Shown here: piece after piece, positions 36,208-52,072 of the stretch | Layout: every line of letters begins with the position of its first letter | Position numbering within the stretch: position 1 is the stretch's first letter | Assembly: GCA_958295755.1 (NCBI GenBank) | Contig: OY282367.1 | Coordinates: 1,058,022-1,122,021, forward strand | Source of the DNA: an uncultured Acidimicrobiales bacterium | GTDB lineage: Bacteria; Actinomycetota; Acidimicrobiia; Acidimicrobiales; Hopanoidiivorantaceae | Direction: 5' to 3' | Length of the DNA stretch: 64,000 nt | Program-made: the position numbers and the translations under genes | The notes under the pieces: generated by a model | What the model was told of the DNA's origin: nothing | Database searches by the model: none | The model's input: only the letters and a program-made list of their open reading frames with translations

Positions 36208-36464
36208 GGTGGTGGCTGGAGACTGGTTTAATATCAGCATCCCACATCTATTTGCTAGACTTACAAATCGCTCTGCCTGCTGGGTCTATGAGATGCAAGT
36301 CTGGCAGGGTGTCGGTAGCTAGTGCTGCTATTCGTGTGCGGTTGGATGGCGAGGGTATCGTTATCGCTTCTGTGGTATGTTTCGGGTTTGTCGGCCTGTG
36401 ACGCAGAGATCTGTCAGTGTGTTGGTGGCTAGTGTGGTGAAGGGGAGTTGTTGGGTTTGATTGA

Positions 36465-39400
36465 TTAGGATCGCAGCGGCGCGACTCTGGGGATTGCTCG
36501 GCAAGCTTGACTGGTGCCTGCTCCTTTGAGATCTGCTGGGATTGATGTTGCGAGGCAGACGAAGATTGTGCTGCTGGATGGGCAAGATACGAGTACTGCC
36601 CCCCCCCCGTCTATTTCATGGTTCGCGGCATCGCTCTTGCTGCGTTTATCCCCGACAGGCAGTGAAGGTCCGCTAGAACTACTGATGCCAGTACCGTAAC
36701 TTTCGCCACGCTTGACGGAGTCGTTATCAGAATTGATATCTTGGAAGGTTGCGGGTTGGGCGTCCGGTGATATGGAGGTCGGGAAGAGTGCTGGTCGCGA
36801 AGGTTGTGAACGGGAGTTGGACGTCGCGCATGACGAGAATCGTTGCTGTGAGCTTCTGAGCACCCCCCCCCCGCTTATCTCGTTCGCGGTATCGCTCTGG
36901 TCTGTTGCCCTGCCGCTGTCGAGTGAAGATCTGGGATCGTGTCGGTTGCTATCGTGTTGAACATTGCCATATTCGCTGGAGCCGTCAACAGTATCGCCGT
37001 CTGGTAATGACTCGGAGACCCCCCCCCGCAGATTATTCAAATCAGATATCGTGCCCGATGCTAAAACAGAGTCGTTTGTTCCTCTTCCTGAGCCACTCGT
37101 GAAACCCACAGACTCGCTCTCTTCGTTGCGGGGAAACATGGCTGACACTGTTTTCACAGACTGGAGGATTCGTGGATCTTCGTAGAGCCAGAGTTTCGTG
37201 AAAGGTCTGTAAAGAACCTCTCTTATTCTCCATTCTTCAAAAACTACAGATTCGCGTTTTTTAAGCGGAGATCTAAGTTGAGTAACCCCAGATAACTGAT
37301 GTTCTTTCATTATCGGAGTTACTATTTCGTTGGTTAGTTTCGTTATATGGTTGAGATTATTGATGTCATCTAAGGCATCTTGATAGCGAGATAGGAGTGT
37401 TCGGATTTTGTCTTCTAGAGCTTCTCGGCTCCAGGAGTAGGCCCAAACGTCGCAGTTAGTCTTAACGCCCGAGGCGTGGCTACTGGCTGCGACATGTGTG
37501 CTTACTCCTGCGAAATCTTTGTCTTTGAGGCGGCTGGTCTCCACGACAGGCATCATCGCCTCAAACTGAGGATCGGGCAAGCAAGTCCAATCGTGCTTCG
37601 GAGTAACAGGTATACTTTCCGCTCCCTCCCAATAGATATCGCCTATCTCTTCCAGCCACTTCCATTTTTCATCTAAAGAGCAATATTCTGGCACCTCCAT
37701 ATATTGGACATTTGCTGGTTGTGATAGGTCTTTGGCAGGGTTGCGGACAAGGAATGTTATCTGGACACCATTGCGAGAACCACCACCGAAAATTCCGTCG
37801 CCTTCCTTTCGGCGTTCTTTTCCGCTCTTGTAGGCGTTGCCACGCAAATTCACCACGAAAATATCTGTGAACTCATCACGAAAAACTCCCCTAGCTCCAG
37901 CAAGAGAAGTGCCTTCAGCCAAGCTATTCGGATGCACAAAAGCAACGACAGACGGATGATCTTTCTGCCCTTCTGCTTCAGAAGCAGATGGGTTAACAAT
38001 CCTGTCTGAAGCCCACCGCAATGCCTGAATATAAAGATTCCCATAGGCATTGCCGCCAGGGGAGGAACCTGTAACACGCTTGTGCTCAGCTACGAAAGTT
38101 TCTTTAACCCTTTTTTCTACTTCTGGATTAGATTTTTTGTCCGCTCCTTCTCCCGCCTTGTCTTTGCCAGACGACCACGGCGGGTTCCCGAAAACAACAT
38201 ACATGGGCTTTTCATCCTGAACACTGCGCCTGCCGCTTGTTCCCCACAGACTACCTTGTGCGGGGAAATCCTCGAAAGTGTCCGAAAGACACAGCCCTGC
38301 GAATTCTTTATACTCATCTGAGGAGAGCCTGTCGTGTCGCGCCTGCTCTATCGTCAAAGCAGCCACATAATATGCGAGAAGGACTAGCTCGTTGGCGTGC
38401 AGTTCTTCACTGTATTTCCTCTCCAGATCTTCATCAGGTACGAAAGGATTCCCTTCAAGATCTATGCCTGTTAGCAGTCTTGCCAAAAAAGTGCCTGTAC
38501 CGCTAAACGGGTCTAACACATGAACATTCTCACTGCCGATGTCTCTGCCGAACTCTTGACGACAAATAGCAGCACAGGAGCGGACTATGAAATCAACAAT
38601 CTCTACGGGAGTATAAACAATACCTAGCTCGTCTACAGTCCCAGGCATTGCTTCAGCGAAAAACCCGTCATAGATAGATTTAAGAACATCTAGCCTGTCC
38701 ACAGATGAGACCGCACCTTCAAAAGCTCTGCCCATAGCTTCGTAAGCTCTGTTCAGACGGACTGTTTCTTCTGGGAACGGATTCTGCGGGTTTTGCCTTA
38801 GTTTCTCCAACATTTCTCGTATCGCTATGCTGACGAGGTTTTTGTCGGCGAAATGTGCCTTGCCTAGCATTTTGTCGAAGATCGGTATAGTGACGACATG
38901 CTGGGCTAGCATTTCTCTGGCTTGGTCAATGGTGATGTCTTTTGAAACAGATTCCTGAAGTCTTTTGGTGAAGTCTTCTAGGTGCTGTTTATGCTCTGCC
39001 GATGCTGTCAATTCTTTTAGTTTCGTTGCGATATTCGCGGCTACTCTGGCTGCGTGTTTGCCCCAGCCTGGGTATGTGCCTGTATCGCCACAAAACTTGA
39101 CGACTTTTGAAGCAACCTCTCGCTTCAGCTCTTCGTAAAACAACCTTCCCGTCTCCGTAGATGTGTCGGTTCTATCGGGTGTCGGATCAGTGAGGCGTCT
39201 GATAGACCTGATAGTGATCGGACCTTTTTCTTCCATCACAGCTGGGTGCTTCAGATATTCGTCCATTCTCTCGTCGTGCGAACGCAAAGCCTTCACAACC
39301 CTGTAGAGCTTCTTCCAGTCGCTACTTTCCAGCCACTTGTCTGGGTCTTCTTCGTCGGGAACAAATACAGGCAGTACCACATAGCCTTTGGCCTTGCCTT

Positions 39401-41207
39401 CGGTCTTGCGCATGACACGCCCTATCTGCTGGGCTATATCTACCGCGCTGCTACGGCTATCCAAAAATATCACCGCGTCCAAAGAGGGCACATTCACGCC
39501 TTCTGAAAACACACCTACATTAGCAACAACACTGCACTTGCCATGCTCATCTGATTTTCGCAGAGCGTTTATAGCTGCGATCCGCTGATCTGAGGGGGTT
39601 TCGGCTTCCACATGGGTCACATCTAGCTTCAAACGAGTTTCTGTGGATCCCTGCACCTGTTCTATTTTGTCGTTAATATCCTGCCACTCATCGGCAACCC
39701 AGCTACTGTTCGCCACTTCGTTTAGATAACAAATAGCCGAGGTGAGATGCCCGTCGGTTACGCTTCCTGTGGGATGGTCTACTGACGCCTCTTCTGTTTC
39801 AGGTGATGACAAAGCGTCCCAAGCTCCTACCAATCTAATGAGATCGTCCATCGCCACAGGTTTTTCTTTCCACACAACCATCCCGTCTTGTATCGGCAGA
39901 GAATCTCTGAAAGCTTCGCGGCTACCTGTGACCACCAGCACCTCATAGTCAGACAGATAACCTTGCTTTATAGCATCGGAGAAGCTCATGCTGTCTAGAA
40001 CCTTGCCGTAAACCTTTTCATCTGCCATGTCGTAGCTGTCGGGTTGGTCATCTAGGTCTTCGCTGGCTTTTTTGTCGGCGAACACACGTGGTGTGGCTGT
40101 GAAAAATAGTCTTTTCTCTGCTGGGATATCGCTGTCGTGTAGTGGCATCACGAACCCGCTTGTGCGTGGCTTATCCCGCCCAGAAGTTCTGTGAGCCTCG
40201 TCTAATATCATCAGGTCAAACTCGAACCCTGCAGCGAAAGTCTCTATAGCCTGTTTTATTTTCGGCGAAGATTGATATGTGCTGAAAAGGACACGCATAG
40301 CAGAATCAGGGGCAGGCTTAGCCAACCACTCGCCTATCTTGCGAGGATCTGTTGTGACAGGCATGACTAGCTCGGCCATATATCCAGCCACATCAGGATC
40401 GGCGTCTTCTGTCTTAGCTACGCTAGGGTCCGAGCACACCCCGAAGTATTGCAAAGGAATAGAACGCTGTTCCAACCACTCCTGCATCGTCTGATGAACC
40501 AAACCGAGCGACGGCACAAGATACAGAACTGTTTTGCCTTGCCCAGCGTAGTCTTCGGCTGTGCGTAAAGACACGAACATTTTCCCTGTGCCGCAAGGCA
40601 AAATTATCTGCCCCCGACTGGCATCGCTTTCAGTAAAGGCTTGTATAGCGGCTTCTCTGGCTTTTGTCTGATAGTCGCGTTCTTGCAATTTCGGCGGCGA
40701 GGGTATCTGAAGGTTAGAGAAATCGTCTACCCAGTCGTTCCAATCGTCTACCCAATCTTCCATCGTCCCCGTGTATAGCACTTGACACATTTGCGGAGAC
40801 TTCAGCAGAGCTTGAGTTGCTGTGGATGTCACTTTGGCGTTAGTGGTCAGCAAACCCGAAGAGAATACCTGATTAGATCCCTGGACATCTACCAGAAATT
40901 TGGCTATCTCGCCTTTCCCGACAGATGAATCCTTGTTCCAGTGTTTACATTGTATCGCACAGTATCCGCCGCCCCAAGCATCAGTTTGTTTGGCAACAAT
41001 ATCTATCCCGTTCACTTCTGGAAGCCCCGTCAAGTCTTTGTCGGGCCATTCGCTCCACAGCCACACTTTCTCGAAACGCTCTTTGCCGTAAGCCCCGGGG
41101 TGCTCCTGGAAAATTTTCTGGACGAGCCTTTCGAACCTGTTTCCTTTTTGCTTGCTGTTTGGATCGTCAGCAACAAGTTTCGCTAAAGCTTCGGTGATAT
41201 TAGCCAT
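36465..41207 (-). CDS. Type ISP-like restriction-modification enzyme, large subunit, phase-variable 3' end
   Basis: Protein of 1580 residues as read here. Mrr-like nuclease: about 60-95, GIDIVAKQ ... AIQCKHW, a D-QxK site. SF2 helicase: LPCGTGKM about 203, ILDEAH about 334, FTATPR about 369, QQIGRVMRK about 593. Coupler. N6-adenine methylase: DPFSGTGTF about 899, NPPWSSG about 1008. Then the beginning of a target recognition domain (YRPFTKLWLYEDPR about 1370). This order is that of Type ISP enzymes, which translocate on DNA and cut. From about residue 1395, after poly-G tract 1, the sequence is Ser/Asp-rich and unlike the family until ending D. ATG at 41207 overlaps the upstream TGA (TGATG); a longer frame to 41291 is a shadow. 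Confidence 0.85.
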   Translation of the reverse strand: MANITEALAKLVADDPNSKQKGNRFERLVQKIFQEHPGAYGKERFEKVWLWSEWPDKDLTGLPEVNGIDIVAKQTDAWGGGYCAIQCKHWNKDSSVGKGEIAKFLVDVQGSNQVFSSGLLTTNAKVTSTATQALLKSPQMCQVLYTGTMEDWVDDWNDWVDDFSNLQIPSPPKLQERDYQTKAREAAIQAFTESDASRGQIILPCGTGKMFVSLRTAEDYAGQGKTVLYLVPSLGLVHQTMQEWLEQRSIPLQYFGVCSDPSVAKTEDADPDVAGYMAELVMPVTTDPRKIGEWLAKPAPDSAMRVLFSTYQSSPKIKQAIETFAAGFEFDLMILDEAHRTSGRDKPRTSGFVMPLHDSDIPAEKRLFFTATPRVFADKKASEDLDDQPDSYDMADEKVYGKVLDSMSFSDAIKQGYLSDYEVLVVTGSREAFRDSLPIQDGMVVWKEKPVAMDDLIRLVGAWDALSSPETEEASVDHPTGSVTDGHLTSAICYLNEVANSSWVADEWQDINDKIEQVQGSTETRLKLDVTHVEAETPSDQRIAAINALRKSDEHGKCSVVANVGVFSEGVNVPSLDAVIFLDSRSSAVDIAQQIGRVMRKTEGKAKGYVVLPVFVPDEEDPDKWLESSDWKKLYRVVKALRSHDERMDEYLKHPAVMEEKGPITIRSIRRLTDPTPDRTDTSTETGRLFYEELKREVASKVVKFCGDTGTYPGWGKHAARVAANIATKLKELTASAEHKQHLEDFTKRLQESVSKDITIDQAREMLAQHVVTIPIFDKMLGKAHFADKNLVSIAIREMLEKLRQNPQNPFPEETVRLNRAYEAMGRAFEGAVSSVDRLDVLKSIYDGFFAEAMPGTVDELGIVYTPVEIVDFIVRSCAAICRQEFGRDIGSENVHVLDPFSGTGTFLARLLTGIDLEGNPFVPDEDLERKYSEELHANELVLLAYYVAALTIEQARHDRLSSDEYKEFAGLCLSDTFEDFPAQGSLWGTSGRRSVQDEKPMYVVFGNPPWSSGKDKAGEGADKKSNPEVEKRVKETFVAEHKRVTGSSPGGNAYGNLYIQALRWASDRIVNPSASEAEGQKDHPSVVAFVHPNSLAEGTSLAGARGVFRDEFTDIFVVNLRGNAYKSGKERRKEGDGIFGGGSRNGVQITFLVRNPAKDLSQPANVQYMEVPEYCSLDEKWKWLEEIGDIYWEGAESIPVTPKHDWTCLPDPQFEAMMPVVETSRLKDKDFAGVSTHVAASSHASGVKTNCDVWAYSWSREALEDKIRTLLSRYQDALDDINNLNHITKLTNEIVTPIMKEHQLSGVTQLRSPLKKRESVVFEEWRIREVLYRPFTKLWLYEDPRILQSVKTVSAMFPRNEESESVGFTSGSGRGTNDSVLASGTISDLNNLRGGVSESLPDGDTVDGSSEYGNVQHDSNRHDPRSSLDSGRATDQSDTANEISGGGVLRSSQQRFSSCATSNSRSQPSRPALFPTSISPDAQPATFQDINSDNDSVKRGESYGTGISSSSGPSLPVGDKRSKSDAANHEIDGGGAVLVSCPSSSTIFVCLATSIPADLKGAGTSQACRAIPRVAPLRS
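36599..36608 (-). repeat. Poly-G tract 3 (10 G on minus strand)
   Basis: Homopolymer of ten C on the plus strand inside the restriction gene. Length 10 leads to ending D, 11 to E, 9 to F. It lies two bases after the stop codon of ending C, so one cassette ends where the next switch begins. Confidence 0.9.
36863..36872 (-). repeat. Poly-G tract 2 (10 G on minus strand)
   Basis: Ten-base homopolymer inside the restriction gene. Length 10 keeps the current frame to tract 3; 11 gives ending B; 9 gives ending C. It lies two bases after the stop of ending A. Confidence 0.9.
37019..37027 (-). repeat. Poly-G tract 1 (9 G on minus strand)
   Basis: Nine-base homopolymer directly after the codons for SDLNNLR. 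Length 9 keeps the current frame; 8 leads to ending A, the most family-like C-terminus; 10 leads to a stop after about 12 codons. Confidence 0.9.
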
Positions 41208-41917
41208 CAGACCATCACTTTCTGCTTGGTTTCTTCTGGCAACGACGCTGGCAGAGCGGCTACTATTCTCGCAGTCTCGGTGGATACCCACACCAGTCTC
41301 CGAAGATGACGCACAAGCTCGAACGGACTGTCAGCCCAGAGGTGCCAGTTGTTGGGGTCGTCTGTTATCTTTGTGGTTTTGTCTTGTTTGTGTCTTAGGC
41401 TGTCTATCGCCCATTCCAGCGGGCTACGACCGGATATTGTGTAGTCTTGAGCTTCTTCGGGGATGTTAACAAGCTTGCATCTCGGGTTGATTTCTAAGAC
41501 AGTGAAATCATACTTGATTTCTGGGTCGTTGTTTTTGCCCCATTTGAGTTTTTCTAGCTTGTAGTCTTCATGCGGATTGAGAGATATGCCTTCGTTTTCT
41601 ATCCCGTCCACTTCGCATTTCACATCGGGATGCTCGGGACATGTTTCGTAGCCGATATGTAAATCCATAAGTTCTCTACCCGCCGCTCTGAACGCCTCGA
41701 AATCTGGAGCGAAAGGTATGCGGGGCAGACTCTTCTGAAGATGGCAATCGTATCTGTCCCGCCAGTCGGGGGCGTGCATCACACCGTAGAGATATTCCCA
41801 GATGTCGTCTTTGGTGATGTTGGTGTCGCCATAGTGTGCTTGAAACTCACTGAGGCACCAGTCGGTGATGTTGTCGGTGTCTTCAAGTTGTTCGTCGGCG
41901 AAAAGTTGTGTGGTCAT
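41207..41917 (-). CDS. Detached C-terminal specificity domain of the Type ISP enzyme
   Basis: Protein of 236 residues that matches what normally is the extreme C-terminus of single-chain Type ISP enzymes: NITDWCLSEFQAHYGD, ITKDDIWEYLYGVMHAPDWR, LQKSLPRIPFAPDFEAF, AAGRELMDLHIGYE, then SGRSPLEWAIDSLR, DDPNNW and VSTETARIVAALP. Here it is a separate gene placed before the large subunit, and its TGA shares one base with the large-subunit ATG. An AGGA site precedes the ATG at 41917. I infer that it assembles with the large subunit to complete the target recognition domain. Confidence 0.8.
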   Translation of the reverse strand: MTTQLFADEQLEDTDNITDWCLSEFQAHYGDTNITKDDIWEYLYGVMHAPDWRDRYDCHLQKSLPRIPFAPDFEAFRAAGRELMDLHIGYETCPEHPDVKCEVDGIENEGISLNPHEDYKLEKLKWGKNNDPEIKYDFTVLEINPRCKLVNIPEEAQDYTISGRSPLEWAIDSLRHKQDKTTKITDDPNNWHLWADSPFELVRHLRRLVWVSTETARIVAALPASLPEETKQKVMV

Positions 41918-41959
41918 TTCTTTGTTCCTATCTCTAGGTCTCTAGGCTGTTGCTCATTA

Positions 41960-41970
41960 CCCCCCCCCCC
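41960..41970. repeat. Intergenic 11-base C/G homopolymer between divergent operons
   Basis: Eleven C on the plus strand, 43 bases upstream of the small-subunit ATG and about 70 bases upstream of the -10 of the GHKL operon. On the minus strand it follows a TTTTTTGATGG stretch. It could alter promoter spacing for the restriction operon; no strong -10 is recognised there. Confidence 0.85.
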
Positions 41971-42041
41971 AGCCATCAAAAAAGCCTACCCTACTCCCCC
42001 TCGCCCTGCACCCTGCAAAAACTAGCCACACAAATCGGCGT

Positions 42042-42047
42042 TATAAT
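42042..42047 (+). promoter_or_regulatory. Probable -10 element (TATAAT) of the GHKL operon
   Basis: Perfect TATAAT 13 bases before the ATG at 42061. A transcript starting about seven bases later would have almost no leader, in keeping with the lack of a ribosome-binding site. No good -35 is seen. Confidence 0.5.
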
Positions 42048-42060
42048 AAGCCAAAATACT

Positions 42061-43959
42061 ATGCCAAATTCTTTGATATCCGACAAGCCCTCCAAGCTGC
42101 ATTTTCAGCCTCAGATTAACAGCAAGGGGTTTACTAACGAGCATATACAAGATAAGTCGGCGTCCGATTTGGAGGTCGTAGTGCGGGAACTTATGCAGAA
42201 CTCGCTTGACGCAAGGGCGGACAGAATCAGTATGCGTATTGTAGATATCCCAGTGGATGACATACCTGGAATAGCAGACTATAGGGCTGCTTTTGAGTCA
42301 GCTTGCGAAGTGCGGGAGAAAAATCTAGAGACTTCAGCTGTGGAAAAGCGGATAGCAGACCAGATAGGCACCATTCTGAACGGGAACACAGCTAATGTTC
42401 TGCTGTGCATTGACAACGGGAACGGGATTGCCGCTGAGGATATGAAAGCTGTATTGTGGTCTGGCAATACCACCAAAGGTAGAGATAGAGGCACTAGCGG
42501 CAGCTTCGGGGTGGGGCATTGCAGTGCTTTCAAGCTGTCAAATCTCAGATATGTCCTCTATGCCACCAGAAGCCGAGACAATAGCGGAAATTTATTAGAA
42601 CTTGTAGCGGGTTCCGCGGTTCTAGCAGAACACGAATCAGGTGGCGAGCCTAGGAGTCCAGAGGGGTTTTATGTAGCCGAACTAGTGAAAAGATCTGACA
42701 GGCAGAAAGCTACATATTCTCCCCCTGACGGGCAATCGGCTCAGTGGCTGAATGAGTCCACCAAGGAAGGTCTGATACCTGCCGGTGCCACCGGCACTAT
42801 TGTCGCTATTCTCGGTTTTCCTAGCGAAGCGGATATGGTTGACGGGATTTGCAAAGCGGCAACGAAAAATTTTTATGAAGCCTTTACAGAAGGCAAACTT
42901 TCTTTGAATGTGAAGAACGGCGATGAGTCTGACAAAATTATGCTCAAGACCATCTCGGAACACATGAAACAAATACAAAACGATAAAACCTCACCGAAGA
43001 AAGGACTATTGAAAGGTTCTTGGGCGGCAGCTCAACATCGCACGTTTAAATCAGGAGAGAAAATCATTGACGATAAAAACGCTACGGTAAGACTTCGCAA
43101 ATGGAAACACGAAGAATACGGCAATAGTGCGGCTCGAGATGTTGCTATATGCCGTAATGGGATGTGGATAGCTAGAAACGAAGCACCCAACTTGCTACCA
43201 CGCGATTTCAGCGAAACACAGCCTTTCCAATGTGTCATCTCGGTTAAAGCTGATAGCGACCTACATCAACTGGTTAAAGACGCTGAAGGACCTGAGCATA
43301 TCGGTTTAGCTTACCTTAAAGAAATGTCTAAAAAAGATAGCAAGTGGCTACGAGAAATTCTAGGAGAGTTTGCGGAGAAAATCAGGGAAGTGGCTGGAAA
43401 AATCGCTGATTCTGAAGAATATATTCTGCCAGATTTCGCGATGCTAACAGGAGGCAAAGAGGAAAATGCAGAACGACTACCAAACAAACCTAGACCAACA
43501 CCGCCAGACCCAGACGATCCACCACCGGCACCGCCCGAGCCGCGACCAGAACCTACTCCGCAACCATTCGTAGATAAGCCTTTCACAGACGGGCTGGTAG
43601 TTTCTATGCTGCCAATAGTAGACGGCGGGGTAGCACATAAACTTTTTTGTACTATAGAGATAGACCACGAAAAGGACATTCCCGGCAAACTTGGTTTTCG
43701 TGTGGGGTACAACACCGGCAGTGACGCATCTTGCGACAGGTGGCTACCAACAACCCATTTGAAAATCCAATCTGTGGAATGGCAAGCCGGCAGCCGAAGC
43801 GTCCGTGAAAATGAACTTGAAGGGGGTGTGATGTTCGTAGATGCGGCACACAGTATGACTTTGGAAATCGCATTGCAGAATCCGATAGACACGGCAGAAG
43901 CGAACGCTCTGAAGTTGGAGGCGATACAGCGCATAGATAAAGAAATGCCGAAACAATGA
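42061..43959 (+). CDS. GHKL (Hsp90/histidine-kinase-type) ATPase
   Basis: Protein of 632 residues with an N-terminal GHKL ATP-binding fold. N-box RELMQNSLDA is at about 43-52, DNGNGI (G1) at about 118-123, and the lid glycine box GTSGSFGVGH at about 147-156. The rest is unrecognised. A Pro/Glu/Arg-rich linker (about 480-510) separates the ATPase half from a C-terminal beta-rich domain. ATG at 42061 is preferred to the in-frame TTG at 41950, which would place the C-tract inside the coding sequence. It overlaps the next gene by ATGA. Three co-oriented overlapping genes divergent from a restriction operon suggest a defence module; the function is not known. Confidence 0.75.
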   Translation: MPNSLISDKPSKLHFQPQINSKGFTNEHIQDKSASDLEVVVRELMQNSLDARADRISMRIVDIPVDDIPGIADYRAAFESACEVREKNLETSAVEKRIADQIGTILNGNTANVLLCIDNGNGIAAEDMKAVLWSGNTTKGRDRGTSGSFGVGHCSAFKLSNLRYVLYATRSRDNSGNLLELVAGSAVLAEHESGGEPRSPEGFYVAELVKRSDRQKATYSPPDGQSAQWLNESTKEGLIPAGATGTIVAILGFPSEADMVDGICKAATKNFYEAFTEGKLSLNVKNGDESDKIMLKTISEHMKQIQNDKTSPKKGLLKGSWAAAQHRTFKSGEKIIDDKNATVRLRKWKHEEYGNSAARDVAICRNGMWIARNEAPNLLPRDFSETQPFQCVISVKADSDLHQLVKDAEGPEHIGLAYLKEMSKKDSKWLREILGEFAEKIREVAGKIADSEEYILPDFAMLTGGKEENAERLPNKPRPTPPDPDDPPPAPPEPRPEPTPQPFVDKPFTDGLVVSMLPIVDGGVAHKLFCTIEIDHEKDIPGKLGFRVGYNTGSDASCDRWLPTTHLKIQSVEWQAGSRSVRENELEGGVMFVDAAHSMTLEIALQNPIDTAEANALKLEAIQRIDKEMPKQ

Positions 43960-46513: not shown

Positions 46514-46699
46514 ATTTTAATGCTACTAAGGAATTGCATATCAAGGGAATAGCCGCTCGTAACGACTGCTATGCGCGGCTTAAGCGAAGACGGGAGCGAA
46601 AAACGGCGGGGTTTCCTATTGCGCTGACAAGTTCACAAATATTCGTGCTCGCATCTCCGCAATGCCTCTTTCATGTTTTCTTTGTCTTTCTTGGTACGA

Positions 46700-46870
46700 G
46701 TCTTGTTGATGGATCTAAGACGTGCAAGTCTGCTATCTGGTTGACGGCTAGAGCGGCTATTCGGGTTCTGTTTGATGGCGGAGCTAACGCTATGCCTGTC
46801 TGGGCACGGCGCGGGTTTGTCTGCCTGTGACGCAAAGGTCTGCCAGAGTATCTACCTTCAGTGGTTAAGC
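46700..46870 (-). pseudogene. Remnant copy of restriction-gene ending cassettes
   Basis: The minus strand carries, in two frames, fragments matching endings E and F of the array at 36.2-36.6 kb: DTLADLCVTGRQTRAVPR in one frame, and SNRTRIAALAVNQIADLH ending in RKTKKT in the other. The DNA is visibly similar over about 150 bases and in the same orientation as the array 10 kb to the left. No start codon or rest of the gene is attached. It is either a donor cassette or debris of a former gene copy. Confidence 0.65.
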
Positions 46871-48766: not shown

Positions 48767-51700
48767 CTATGAAGCTTTTGGTTGGTAAGTACGGCATAGA
48801 TGCTCGCAGAAGTTTGTGCTGGTTGTCTTGACCGATTGGATTTCTAGCAGGGTTTCCCTGGCTACTATGTCTGGAGCGTCGGGCGGTGTGTTCAGCCACA
48901 GTATGTCGCCTGGCTGTTTTCGCTGGGAGAGTGGAGTCAAAAATCTGTAAACAGTTTCGTTCGTGTCTGGATGGTTAACATAGTCAGCAAAAGGATATTC
49001 GGCTGGGTCTTCTAGTAGCGGTTTGCCTGTATCTGGCAATACTGGCGGCAGTGGAGGTTTTCTGTCTTGATGTGCGGCTTCGGCGTGTGCCTGTTGGATA
49101 TTGAGTATTTCTTTGTAGCGGGAGACAGGCAAACAGAAAGGACGGATGGGATAGAAGTCTAAATGGCTGTCCCAAGCGACAGAATCGTCTGCCTCAGAAA
49201 ATGCAGTCTCTCCCCAACCCTCTATTGTTGTTACCGACACCATGTGGCATTTTTCTTCAAACAGTAGTTCTCCGTACCAGTAAATCTTCAGAACTAACTT
49301 TGAAGGACGCAGAATTTCGCTCGGGTTCAGAGGAGAAAATGTTTTGACTGATTCGTCTGTAAATTTGACGCTAAGAGCCATCTTGCCGTAGCGTCCCTCT
49401 CCAATCATGAGTTCCGCTAACTCACCTTTGGCTAAAGTTGCATTCTGGCGATCTGAGATTTCTGCCTCCACAGGAGACTTCCCCACTAAACCCAATAGAG
49501 TCATGTCACCTCCGCATTTTTGGCAAAAATGTTTGAAAAGGTGAAGGCCAGGATACAAAATTCTACTAGGCATGCTGTAAGGCAGATCGCAGATATGTTC
49601 CTCTATATCCTTTGGTGTGTTCAAGCGAAATCCCCAGTTTTTTTCAGCCTGCATCCTTTGCTGCCTATTTAAATCAGCGTTGTCGTAAGCTTCTTTTATT
49701 TTAGCCCCTAGTATTTCAGCCTCTGTTTCGGATTTACGTAAAAATGCTAGCAGCGTTTCGGGTTTCATTCCGAAAACCTGTGTAGATACCAGCCGCAGAA
49801 TTTCAGCGATAACGTCTATAGCACGGCGAGACATAACCTCTTCGCCACCATCATTAAATCCAATTTTCTTGATATACCAGCTTTGTCCATCTATATCTTC
49901 TCTGTTATGGGCCATGGCATTGCGAACTGTAGTTATATATGTAGCCAGCTGCATATCTGATGTTTGCTGTGCCGCTAGTTTTGCGATCAAGTTCAAATCA
50001 TTTTTTCTTCCATCCCTGTTCTGGTAGTCAGGATGGTTGCGAAAATCTTTCCATAACTTATTTGGTTTGCGGAAACCGGCTAGCCGCCTTTCAATGTCAC
50101 GTAACACTTCCAGTTGGTGTTGCTTGAAAAGACAGTCTGCGTCATAAACGCTGTGCAAATCAACATCTGCTGCCTCCTTGATGACATCTAGCAGGACGGG
50201 CAAAGATGGAGTATATCCCTTATACCATTGCTCGCCTCTCAGCTCTTTGAACTCCTTGACCCTGCTTTTCGGTTCGGGCTGCAGAAAGGAGTCAAGAGCC
50301 GAGAACAATGCAATTACCGTGTTCCTGCCAACCAGCTCTCTGTATTCATCGGTCGGAAAGCTGAGGGCAAACGGGCCTAGATATTTGTTCCACACTCCAA
50401 TGCTTTTCCATATATGCCAGTTCTTGAGCACATCCGCGAATTCGGAGAGTAGCCAATCCCAATGAGATTCGAGTTCATGCGCCACAGATATTTCACGCCC
50501 CTGATGGCCTGAAAATCGCCCAGACAGAGCAGCGAAATTGGTAGCAGATACGTCTGAGCTTTTGGGAGGCACTTGAGAGTTATATTCAGTCGGAAAATAT
50601 CCTGTGCTACTAGGTTCAGGGCTGAAATGAACGATCAACTTTTCGCAATCTCCGCCAGTAAAGGCTAAAGACACATTTTCTCTTGGTGTCCGTAGTTTTA
50701 TCTTCCCGTCTTCGAGCACGAAAAATTCGAACGCCGAGAAACCATAGTCGTATCGATCTGATGTCGGCAAAGTCAAAAGCGGATGTGCCCCGGTTTTAGC
50801 CACAGCATCAGCGATCTCTTGTTTGCGGGATTTCTTCATGGCAGCAGACAAAGGGCGAGAAACTGTGTCGGACGAGTAAGGCGGAGGCGCAGCATCTTGA
50901 GCTAGCTTCCGTGCAGTTTTCTCTACAGCATCACCTATCTTGTAGACATCCCTTGCTTCCCAAATTTTCGCTCTGTGTCCGTTCTCTTTTCTATGTGTTT
51001 GCTTATTGGACGATATGATTTCGTGGTCTTCCAGTTTGGTTATCAGCCGTAGCACAGTTTTCTCCGACACATCCCCCAGACCATTTCGCAAACCGTGCAC
51101 CGTGAACGCAGGATTATGAGATATCCACTTCAGAGCTTTTCTGAGATTCTGGCGTTGAGGAAGAGATGAGCCTGTCTCGTCCGCCCATCTTTCTACAACT
51201 CTGTCGCGCTCAGATGCGTGTTCGCCTACGGCTTCAGCTGCAGCCCAGAGAGCTATTGCGTGAAGCCTTACAGGAAAATCTATATCCCCAGCAGCGTAAG
51301 CTTCAAAACCCTCTAGGTATCTCTGCCTTATTCCATGCAGAGCAGCGGAAACAGGCACAGGACACCGATCTGCGGACAGCAACATCCTCTGCATTGCCGC
51401 CCTTCCTGTTCTTCCATTGCCGTCACAGAAAGGATGTATGCATTCGAACTGCAGATGGGCGAGAGCTATTCGCAGCACAGTGTCAATATCTTCGCGGGCG
51501 GTGAAAGCTACCCAATCTGCCATCAACTCTGGAAGCCTTTCGGGAAGCGGGCCCACATATTCGGCTTCTACTATGTCGTGAGCCTGAGAGACATGCACCT
51601 CTTCGTCGTCTTCGCGGAAACGCCCAGCATGGTCCTCCTCAGACATTATTATTGAGTGATCCTCCAGCAGAGATCGCATTGATATTCGATGGTCTGGGGA

Positions 51701-52072
51701 ATGCAATATCTGCATAAGGCATTCAAGGTTGCGGAGTGTCTGCAATGCCCACGGCTTGGACATCGCCCCAGCCGAAGCCAAGCACACATTCCGTAAGCTG
51801 CTACTTTTGCCTTCTATCCGTGAAGAGTTCACAGCCTCGGTTCTCAACAGTAGCCCTTCCATCACACCACCCAGCCCCGTAGTGCCGTTTCTGCGAGGGA
51901 TGTGCGCCTGTGCTGTTCTGACTATTTCACGGGTATCTGACGACAACTGAGGGATATCCCTGTCGGCGATAAAGGGTGGAACAGCAAACTGAACCTGCTT
52001 GGTTATGGTTTTCAGGTTGCTAGTCTGCCCTGTTCTCTGCCTGATGTCGTAGTCAAACTCTGCCCATTGCAT
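48767..52072 (-). CDS. Fic-domain protein fused to a large C-terminal region with HEPN-type motif
   Basis: Protein of 1101 residues. An N-terminal inhibitory helix NSSRIEG (about 82-88, the S/T-x3-E-G/N motif) precedes a Fic core with a complete active site HPFCDGNGRTGR (213-224), typical of AMP-transferring Fic enzymes. A winged helix (about 305-355) follows. The remaining 740 residues are not standard for Fic proteins; within them TTVRNAMAHNRED (about 715-727) has the R-N-x3-H motif of HEPN ribonucleases or related all-helical domains, and a single CQKCG knuckle lies near 855. The ATG directly follows a TATAAT, so the mRNA is probably leaderless. Combination of AMPylation and RNase-like parts suggests toxin or phage-defence function; this is inference. 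Confidence 0.8.
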   Translation of the reverse strand: MQWAEFDYDIRQRTGQTSNLKTITKQVQFAVPPFIADRDIPQLSSDTREIVRTAQAHIPRRNGTTGLGGVMEGLLLRTEAVNSSRIEGKSSSLRNVCLASAGAMSKPWALQTLRNLECLMQILHSPDHRISMRSLLEDHSIIMSEEDHAGRFREDDEEVHVSQAHDIVEAEYVGPLPERLPELMADWVAFTAREDIDTVLRIALAHLQFECIHPFCDGNGRTGRAAMQRMLLSADRCPVPVSAALHGIRQRYLEGFEAYAAGDIDFPVRLHAIALWAAAEAVGEHASERDRVVERWADETGSSLPQRQNLRKALKWISHNPAFTVHGLRNGLGDVSEKTVLRLITKLEDHEIISSNKQTHRKENGHRAKIWEARDVYKIGDAVEKTARKLAQDAAPPPYSSDTVSRPLSAAMKKSRKQEIADAVAKTGAHPLLTLPTSDRYDYGFSAFEFFVLEDGKIKLRTPRENVSLAFTGGDCEKLIVHFSPEPSSTGYFPTEYNSQVPPKSSDVSATNFAALSGRFSGHQGREISVAHELESHWDWLLSEFADVLKNWHIWKSIGVWNKYLGPFALSFPTDEYRELVGRNTVIALFSALDSFLQPEPKSRVKEFKELRGEQWYKGYTPSLPVLLDVIKEAADVDLHSVYDADCLFKQHQLEVLRDIERRLAGFRKPNKLWKDFRNHPDYQNRDGRKNDLNLIAKLAAQQTSDMQLATYITTVRNAMAHNREDIDGQSWYIKKIGFNDGGEEVMSRRAIDVIAEILRLVSTQVFGMKPETLLAFLRKSETEAEILGAKIKEAYDNADLNRQQRMQAEKNWGFRLNTPKDIEEHICDLPYSMPSRILYPGLHLFKHFCQKCGGDMTLLGLVGKSPVEAEISDRQNATLAKGELAELMIGEGRYGKMALSVKFTDESVKTFSPLNPSEILRPSKLVLKIYWYGELLFEEKCHMVSVTTIEGWGETAFSEADDSVAWDSHLDFYPIRPFCLPVSRYKEILNIQQAHAEAAHQDRKPPLPPVLPDTGKPLLEDPAEYPFADYVNHPDTNETVYRFLTPLSQRKQPGDILWLNTPPDAPDIVARETLLEIQSVKTTSTNFCEHLCRTYQPKAS

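What the first reader, a model, noticed from the sequence alone, without database searches (positions are those of the whole stretch)
36248..37027. Poly-G tracts that swap the C-terminus of a restriction enzyme among several encoded endings
Three G tracts (9, 10, 10) lie in the 3' part of the Type ISP-like gene. Translating every frame after each tract by hand gives six endings (A-F) with the same motif, A-[TS]-x4-D-L followed by R-x-[ILM]-P, the place where family members end this part of the recognition domain. Stops of A and C fall two bases before the next tract. The usual poly-G switch turns a gene on or off; here each slip would select another ending. Shared motifs in different frames, and paralogy of B and E, are hard to explain by chance or decay. 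The protein as sequenced reads through about 150 atypical residues to ending D.
Basis: partly seen in the sequence, partly recalled or inferred. Interest (0 to 1): 0.95.

Follow-up and report, generated by a model that had tools for sequence, protein, structure and literature searches.

The report
Reading-frame switch swaps enzyme's DNA reader
A bacterial gene resembling known DNA-marking and DNA-cutting enzymes carries three runs of Gs, each followed by several alternative protein endings written in different reading frames, so that gaining or losing a G would likely swap the part predicted to read the DNA target and so change which sequences the cell marks and attacks.

Summary
Tracts G9, G10 and G10 lie in the 3' part of a Type ISP gene. 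A profile built from relatives finds endings A-F in the frames claimed (39-64 bits). Tract 1 also has a seventh, short ending, so all nine tract-frames lead to an ending or on to the next tract. A paralog in the same genome repeats the design; with window and paralog, 21 arrays in 20 loci hold 93 endings. Repeat units differ between relatives (G, C, GA, CA, tetra- and pentanucleotides) but sit at one junction. 66 of 66 listed relatives with an unsplit gene have neither repeat nor array there. Of 33 near-identical protein pairs, 25 end differently, and in 21 the tails fit homologous DNA read in two frames (13 at the same place). Changes in endings are mostly synonymous in the ending's own frame only. 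The missing 'guide' part is a separate gene upstream. By alignment to LlaGI/LlaBIII each ending carries Loop VI, which reads target position +3, so slippage is predicted to change specificity; this is untested. C-terminal phase variation and frameshift specificity switching are known; my searches listed no chained three-way selectors over overlapping, conserved recognition modules.

The parts
36465..41291 (-). Main Type ISP gene as sequenced (Mrr nuclease, helicase, coupler, methyltransferase, first part of recognition domain, read-through, ending D); likely start is the ATG that overlaps the stop of the upstream gene, near 41207
   Evidence: ORF; Pfam and PADLOC matches; ATG overlapping upstream stop
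41207..41917 (-). Separate upstream gene for the rest of the recognition domain (guide): Type_ISP_C profile positions 165-332 of 342
   Evidence: aligns to LlaGI, LlaBIII and 7lo5 C-termini; its TGA overlaps the ATG of the main gene (TGATG)
37019..37027 (-). Tract 1, G9
36863..36872 (-). Tract 2, G10
36599..36608 (-). Tract 3, G10
36985..37027 (-). Ending 0 (seventh): short end GGLRVITRRRYC after tract 1, completing the module that begins in the body
   Evidence: same kind of end is the terminus in P0035, P0038, P0052; weak 10.3-bit profile match of the preceding body part
36875..37018 (-). Ending A
   Evidence: 63.5 bits; frame 0 after tract 1
36727..36862 (-). Ending B
   Evidence: 44.7 bits; frame 1 after tract 2
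36611..36862 (-). Frame leading through B's DNA to ending C (motif 36623-36733)
   Evidence: 41.1 bits; frame 0 after tract 2
36465..36598 (-). Ending D
   Evidence: 39.3 bits; frame 2 after tract 3
36361..36598 (-). Frame leading to ending E (motif 36364-36480)
   Evidence: 53.8 bits; frame 1 after tract 3
36248..36598 (-). Frame leading to ending F (motif 36263-36373)
   Evidence: 48.5 bits; frame 0 after tract 3
41960..41970 (-). G11 tract 43 nt upstream of the guide gene's ATG; possible expression switch for the operon
   Evidence: function inferred only

Best explanation
The three G runs stand in front of seven alternative endings encoded one after another in different reading frames, and slippage of a run during DNA copying likely selects which ending completes this split Type ISP restriction-modification enzyme, which is predicted to change the DNA base it reads. 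Each tract has three outcomes: tract 1 leads to ending 0, to ending A, or on to tract 2; tract 2 leads to B, to C, or on to tract 3; tract 3 leads to D, E or F. Shown: the tracts, frames, endings and stops; homology of the endings to one segment of the Type ISP recognition domain; the separate guide gene; the same design at a paralog and in relatives; natural proteins with near-identical bodies whose tails fit homologous DNA in different frames; a synonymous excess in the ending frames. Inferred: the frame change arises by replication slippage; the guide polypeptide assembles with the main chain; the ending supplies Loop VI, reading position +3 (LlaGI numbering), so restriction and methylation specificity change together. 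Untested: enzyme activity, specificity, switching rate, and how self-cutting is avoided just after a switch.
For: Profile hits A-F in the claimed frames. All nine tract-frames are used: eight by profile hit or read-through, the ninth as ending 0. Paralog at G000:C1:280937-286035 with 4 tracts and 7 endings. 93 endings in 21 arrays; 88 of 93 open back across a repeat; of 72 consecutive pairs 69 change frame, and each of the 3 that do not has a repeat between. Repeat units at the same junction: G, C, GA, CA, tetra- and pentanucleotides. 66 of 66 unsplit relatives among 80 listed lack repeat and array there. 21 of 33 near-identical pairs fit homologous DNA in two frames, 13 of them at the same repeat; P0010 with P0011 and P0010 with P0015 each fit one DNA, 0 of 2000 shuffles do. 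16 homologous ending pairs: 103 synonymous to 78 non-synonymous changed codons in the ending frame, against 31:155 and 12:169. Loop VI residues fall inside the ending. Main gene covers Type_ISP_C 6-146, guide gene 165-332 of 342.
Against: No reads of this strain were examined; assembled homopolymer lengths can be wrong, and the near-identical pairs come from assemblies. 12 of 33 pairs showed no run of 20 or more, including P0011/P0015 (100% body identity, run of 7); 8 of 33 end alike; in 8 of the 21 positive pairs the shared cassette stands at a different place in the array, so rearrangement acts as well. Cassettes are shared between loci (88.6% DNA identity over 316 nt). Loop V, which reads +5 and +6, is in the constant body, and so by residue number is Loop IV, so only part of the target would change. 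As sequenced, the protein carries about 140 read-through residues before D. In the AlphaFold model of one-ending relative P0113 the ending is unresolved (pLDDT about 29-40). A sudden switch could expose unmodified self sites. L159 has an array without a repeat at the junction; L102 and L125 have repeats but no profile-level endings, nor has L129.
Confidence: 0.8

Rival explanations
1. The endings are a cassette store: recombination between loci and within arrays installs a new ending, and the tracts are by-products or recombination hot spots.
For: The tract-2 cassette is shared with the paralog at 88.6% DNA identity; close relative P0001 (90% over the queried stretch) has a tract-1 module of the paralog type and ending A behind a different cassette; in 8 of 21 positive near-identical pairs the shared cassette is at a different place in the array.
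Against: Consecutive endings not separated by a repeat are in different frames in every case, frames are open back to the repeat for 88 of 93 endings, and 13 near-identical pairs fit homologous DNA in two frames at the same repeat. A store for recombination needs none of this.
Confidence: 0.1
2. Slippage happens in transcription or translation, so one genotype makes a mixture of endings.
For: Runs of 9 or more G can make RNA polymerase or ribosomes slip (general knowledge, not tested here); all frames are usable, which suits a mixture.
Against: Relatives use GA, CA, tetra- and pentanucleotide repeats, which fit copy-number change in DNA; predicted proteins of near-identical relatives differ in frame, hence in assembled DNA.
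Confidence: 0.07
3. The tracts make an ordinary on/off switch and the extra endings are decaying duplicates of the 3' end.
For: On/off-type tracts do occur inside the body in relatives (frame breaks near body residues 417-439 in L107, L110, L112 and 903-913 in L117). A decayed pair of endings exists at 46686-46852.
Against: Synonymous excess in ending frames only, open frames in 35 cassettes where 5.4 would be expected (frames chosen after the fact), and natural proteins that end in many types.
Confidence: 0.03

Closest known systems
C-terminal phase variation (Neisseria gonorrhoeae; Helicobacter canadensis cited there; PMC5320596, passages seen)
   Same: A repeat near the 3' end switches the C-terminal residues between the three reading frames.
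   Different: In the passages and Table 3 seen, each gene has one repeat and the frames give tails of different length, with no shared homologous module mentioned. Here each tract-frame of the window leads to a homologous recognition module or to the next tract, and tracts are chained.
Frameshift specificity switching of Helicobacter pylori Type IIG enzymes JHP1272 / HP1353-HP1354 (PMC3936762, passages and section 33 seen)
   Same: Homopolymer tracts in a one-chain R-M gene; a frame correction changed specificity (GGWTAA to GGWCNA).
   Different: There one extra C-terminal domain is added or removed. Here up to seven alternatives replace one another inside the recognition core, in overlapping frames, and the rest of the domain is a separate gene; a specificity change is only predicted.
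Type ISP enzymes LlaGI and LlaBIII (PMC4872093, sections 15 and 18 and passages seen)
   Same: Same domain order; ending and guide gene align to their C-terminal halves.
   Different: They are single chains with one recognition segment; no repeats are described in the parts I read. Here the chain is split after the variable segment.
Type I HsdS systems that swap recognition domains by inversion or recombination (recalled)
   Same: One locus gives several DNA specificities.
   Different: They use recombination between gene copies, not reading-frame choice at repeats.

Membership tests
Type ISP restriction-modification enzyme | Mrr-family nuclease, SF2 helicase-like ATPase, coupler, gamma-class adenine methyltransferase | tested here: met
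   Pfam Mrr_cat_2, ResIII, Helicase_C, ISP_coupler above cut-off; N6_Mtase 19.5 bits, just under its 20.4 cut-off; NPPW motif in the sequence; relative P0010 matches LlaBIII at 9e-189
Type ISP restriction-modification enzyme | Recognition domain with core and guide in the same single polypeptide | tested here: not met
   Guide part is a separate gene 41917..41207 (Type_ISP_C 165-332/342); main gene stops at profile position 146 plus the ending. So: a split derivative, not a typical member
Type ISP restriction-modification enzyme | Methylation and cleavage activity | not testable with these tools
   No assay possible
C-terminal phase variation by simple sequence repeats | Repeat near the 3' end whose length sets the C-terminal frame | tested here: met
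C-terminal phase variation by simple sequence repeats | Repeat length varies between strains or cells | tested here: inconclusive
   Indirect only: near-identical proteins in different frames after the same repeat; no reads or same-strain genomes
Frameshift-mediated specificity switching (H. pylori Type IIG) | Different tract states give different methylated motifs | not testable with these tools
   Predicted from Loop VI content only

The most novel reading that the evidence does not exclude
One locus stores up to seven alternative DNA-reading modules in all three reading frames of overlapping DNA and addresses them with chained three-way repeat selectors, a genetic rotary switch for restriction-modification specificity. 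It sits on a split Type ISP enzyme in Acidimicrobiia, keeps its design while the repeat unit changes, and two loci in one genome give dozens of combined specificity states.
Probability: 0.72. Interest if true: 0.95.

Novelty: new variant of a known kind. Interest (0 to 1): 0.92.

Why it matters
If true, slipped-strand repeats do more than turn a gene on or off: they address a compact library of alternative protein modules written in overlapping frames. Phages would meet a population with many restriction specificities from one gene, and the methylome of a clone would be a mixture. It is also a natural case of overlapping frames held open together, and the swapped part is one mapped base-reading loop, so it offers natural sets of enzymes that differ in one recognition element, useful for the partly open Type ISP recognition code.

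Tried and rejected
A genome-contig scan with the window protein found no relative; a scan with alignment A1 did. AlphaFold of P0113 with a 40-row alignment left the ending at pLDDT about 29-40, so no fold search was run on it and it is not used as support. A three-way fit of P0010, P0011 and P0015 to one identical DNA failed at one base, which I explain by a substitution; the pairwise fits of P0010 with each hold. The repeat finder counted AACCAACCAACC inside a coding motif of L106 and L109 as a repeat; I ignore it. The totals (144 repeat-frames: 114 with endings, 3 read-through only, 27 neither) include those two, a tract at L103 8503 before the second gene, a tract cut by the contig end in L041, and the repeats of L102 and L125. 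Five of 93 endings have no repeat of 8 or more before them: in L104 and L106 (two each) short C6 and C7 tracts stand there, in L108 the frame is closed by a stop. Decay, assembly error and chance were considered; the reasons against are in the report.

Full report
What is there. On the minus strand a Type ISP gene (41291..36465) runs through G9 at 37019-37027, G10 at 36863-36872 and G10 at 36599-36608. It matches the Type ISP coupler, the ResIII helicase domain, Mrr nuclease and, at its end, Type_ISP_C, but only profile positions 6-146 of 342. The match stops next to tract 1. The missing part is not lost: the gene just upstream (41917..41207, 236 aa) matches Type_ISP_C 165-332 and aligns to the C-termini of 7lo5, LlaGI and LlaBIII. 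Its stop overlaps the likely ATG of the main gene (TGATG). So the enzyme is split, and the endings fill the gap between the two parts.

The endings. I took the C-termini of the 120 listed relatives (of 438 found); 107 of 120 carry the motif. After dropping 22 of the nearest proteins and duplicates, 85 made a 49-position HMM. Enumerating frames: tract 1 frame 0 gives A, frame 2 passes through, frame 1 gives a 12-residue end; tract 2 gives B, C and pass-through; tract 3 gives D, E and F. The 12-residue end is the tail of a module that begins in the body (that body part scores only 10.3 bits); relatives such as P0035 and P0038 end in the same way. All nine tract-frames are thus used.

Same design elsewhere. 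The genome (2.29 Mb, one contig) has a paralog at C1:280937-286035 with tracts of 9, 11, 10 and 10 G, seven profile-level endings and its own separate guide gene. An ending profile (A3) finds 15 matches in the genome: 6 here, 7 at the paralog, 2 in the decayed pair. I fetched 30 further loci: 20 have repeats near the junction, 10 do not. Of those 10, six have the guide part in the same ORF, one (L120) has it in the same frame after a single stop, and three do not reach the junction (contig end in L126 and L127, an earlier stop in L122). One search examined 22 loci, chosen for having repeats (the 20 plus window and paralog), 23 arrays: 21 hold endings, L102 and L125 do not. Of 93 endings of 20 bits or more, 88 are open back across a repeat. 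Of 72 consecutive pairs 60 step by -1, 9 by +1 and 3 by 0, and the three zeros have a repeat between them. Repeats at the junction are poly-G, poly-C, GA, CA, tetranucleotides (L114, L117) and a pentanucleotide (L115); the pattern, which also looked for units of three and six, listed none of those, which fits frame shifting.

Controls. 66 have the guide fused: 0 of 66 have a repeat or an ending array in the 1.3 kb after the body. 6 have repeats: four titled Acidimicrobiia or Acidimicrobiaceae (of which L129 shows no endings before its contig end), one titled only bacterium (L130), and one Thermoanaerobaculia (L159), whose repeat lies behind the endings, not at the junction. 7 more show neither fusion nor repeat. 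Among 395 genomes drawn from the class, 13 hold endings, the window's own included, so it is uncommon.

Is it switched in nature? 189 of the 198 proteins returned had the anchor used to cut body from tail. Among them 34 pairs have bodies at least 93% identical over more than 400 residues; one was dropped for a short tail. Of 33, 25 have last-48-residue identities under 60% and 8 do not. The last 700 body residues of P0011, P0012 and P0015 are 99.4-100% identical while their ends differ wholly. Testing whether two tails can be one DNA in two frames gave runs of 20-49 residues in 21 of 33 pairs; shuffled controls reached at most 11. 12 pairs gave no such run. In 13 of the 21 the run lies behind the same repeat, counted from the body, in both proteins; in 8 it does not, so cassettes have also been rearranged. 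P0153 and P0173 show it behind a repeat translated as HDTTR units. These are assemblies, so sequencing error in repeats cannot be excluded pair by pair.

Selection. For 16 reciprocal-best homologous ending pairs from different loci (70-98% DNA identity) changed codons were 103 synonymous and 78 not in the ending frame, 31 and 155 in frame +1, and 12 and 169 in +2. In the tract-2 cassette shared with the paralog, B's stretch has 7 synonymous and 4 non-synonymous changed codons in B's frame and 1 and 9 in each other frame; C's stretch has 3 and 1 in C's frame, 0 and 4 and 1 and 3 in the others. Random synonymous recoding of the nearest ending would leave all used frames open in 5.4 of 35 cassettes; all 35 are open, but I chose those frames after seeing them.

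How it likely works. P0097, with a short repeat-coded insert, aligns through its ending to LlaGI (E 4e-9) and LlaBIII (2e-6). The published base-contact residues fix the register: LlaGI H1368, G1372, Q1373 and LlaBIII N1360 (Loop VI, position +3) fall inside the ending, at D-L-x and the variable stretch after it; N1327 and R1329 of Loop V fall in the constant body just before the repeat (PMC4872093 sections 15 and 18; letters; the chain-to-residue offset is my reading). At the H1368 place the endings carry H 34, C 17, A 14, N 13, S 10, K 5, unread 2 (95 endings, the decayed pair included). In the window A-F carry H, H, H, K, C, H within six different loops. So a slip is predicted to swap Loop VI and change the reading of position +3 and perhaps its neighbours for both methylation and cleavage. 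The guide does not read bases in LlaGI, which may be why it can be a separate constant part.

What is known. C-terminal phase variation is a named class in Neisseria (PMC5320596, passages), and H. pylori JHP1272 changes specificity by a tract that adds a C-terminal domain (PMC3936762, passages and one section). Searches for Type ISP with phase variation or simple sequence repeats, Acidimicrobiia with phase variation, and related phrases listed nothing whose title or abstract start describes arrays of alternative recognition endings; I opened only three papers, and the library holds open-licence papers only. I therefore call it a new variant of a known kind, at its far edge.

Noticed in passing
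window 46686-46852, minus strand: Two isolated endings in different frames (37.7 and 29.9 bits) with no body and no repeat beside a 405-aa ORF; looks like a relic of a third array.
   Followed up: partly
window 41960-41970, minus strand: G11 tract 43 nt upstream of the guide gene; an upstream ATG reads through it to a TGA that overlaps the guide gene's ATG, so tract length may tune translation of the operon (read by eye).
   Followed up: no
L102 (G001:C48:7500-17000): A distant, fused Type ISP paralog in the same genus with two C9 tracts flanking the Loop VI segment; another frame after the first tract reads CPDLNILGGGTQTFPRF, possibly a simple two-way form.
   Followed up: partly
L107, L110, L112, L117: Extra G tracts at frame breaks inside the body, probably ordinary on/off switches.
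   Followed up: no
L159 (CATOTG010000007.1): Thermoanaerobaculia locus with three endings, neighbours in different frames, but no repeat at the junction, perhaps a switch frozen by repeat loss.
   Followed up: partly
L040 (G000:C1:926500-941500): Seven tracts of 9 or more G in 15 kb (8 nine-G matches, 0.13 expected) among ORFs; of six scanned, five had no Pfam match and one only weak ones; a possible cluster of other phase-variable genes.
   Followed up: partly
window 41953-43959 (+) and 52072..48767 (-): GHKL-ATPase gene like PADLOC PDC-M33A and a Fic-domain gene like SoFic lie beside the locus, suggesting a defence island.
   Followed up: no
P0073: A relative named as from a Thaumarchaeota MAG has a similar body, read-through and ending layout; transfer or mis-binning.
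   Followed up: no
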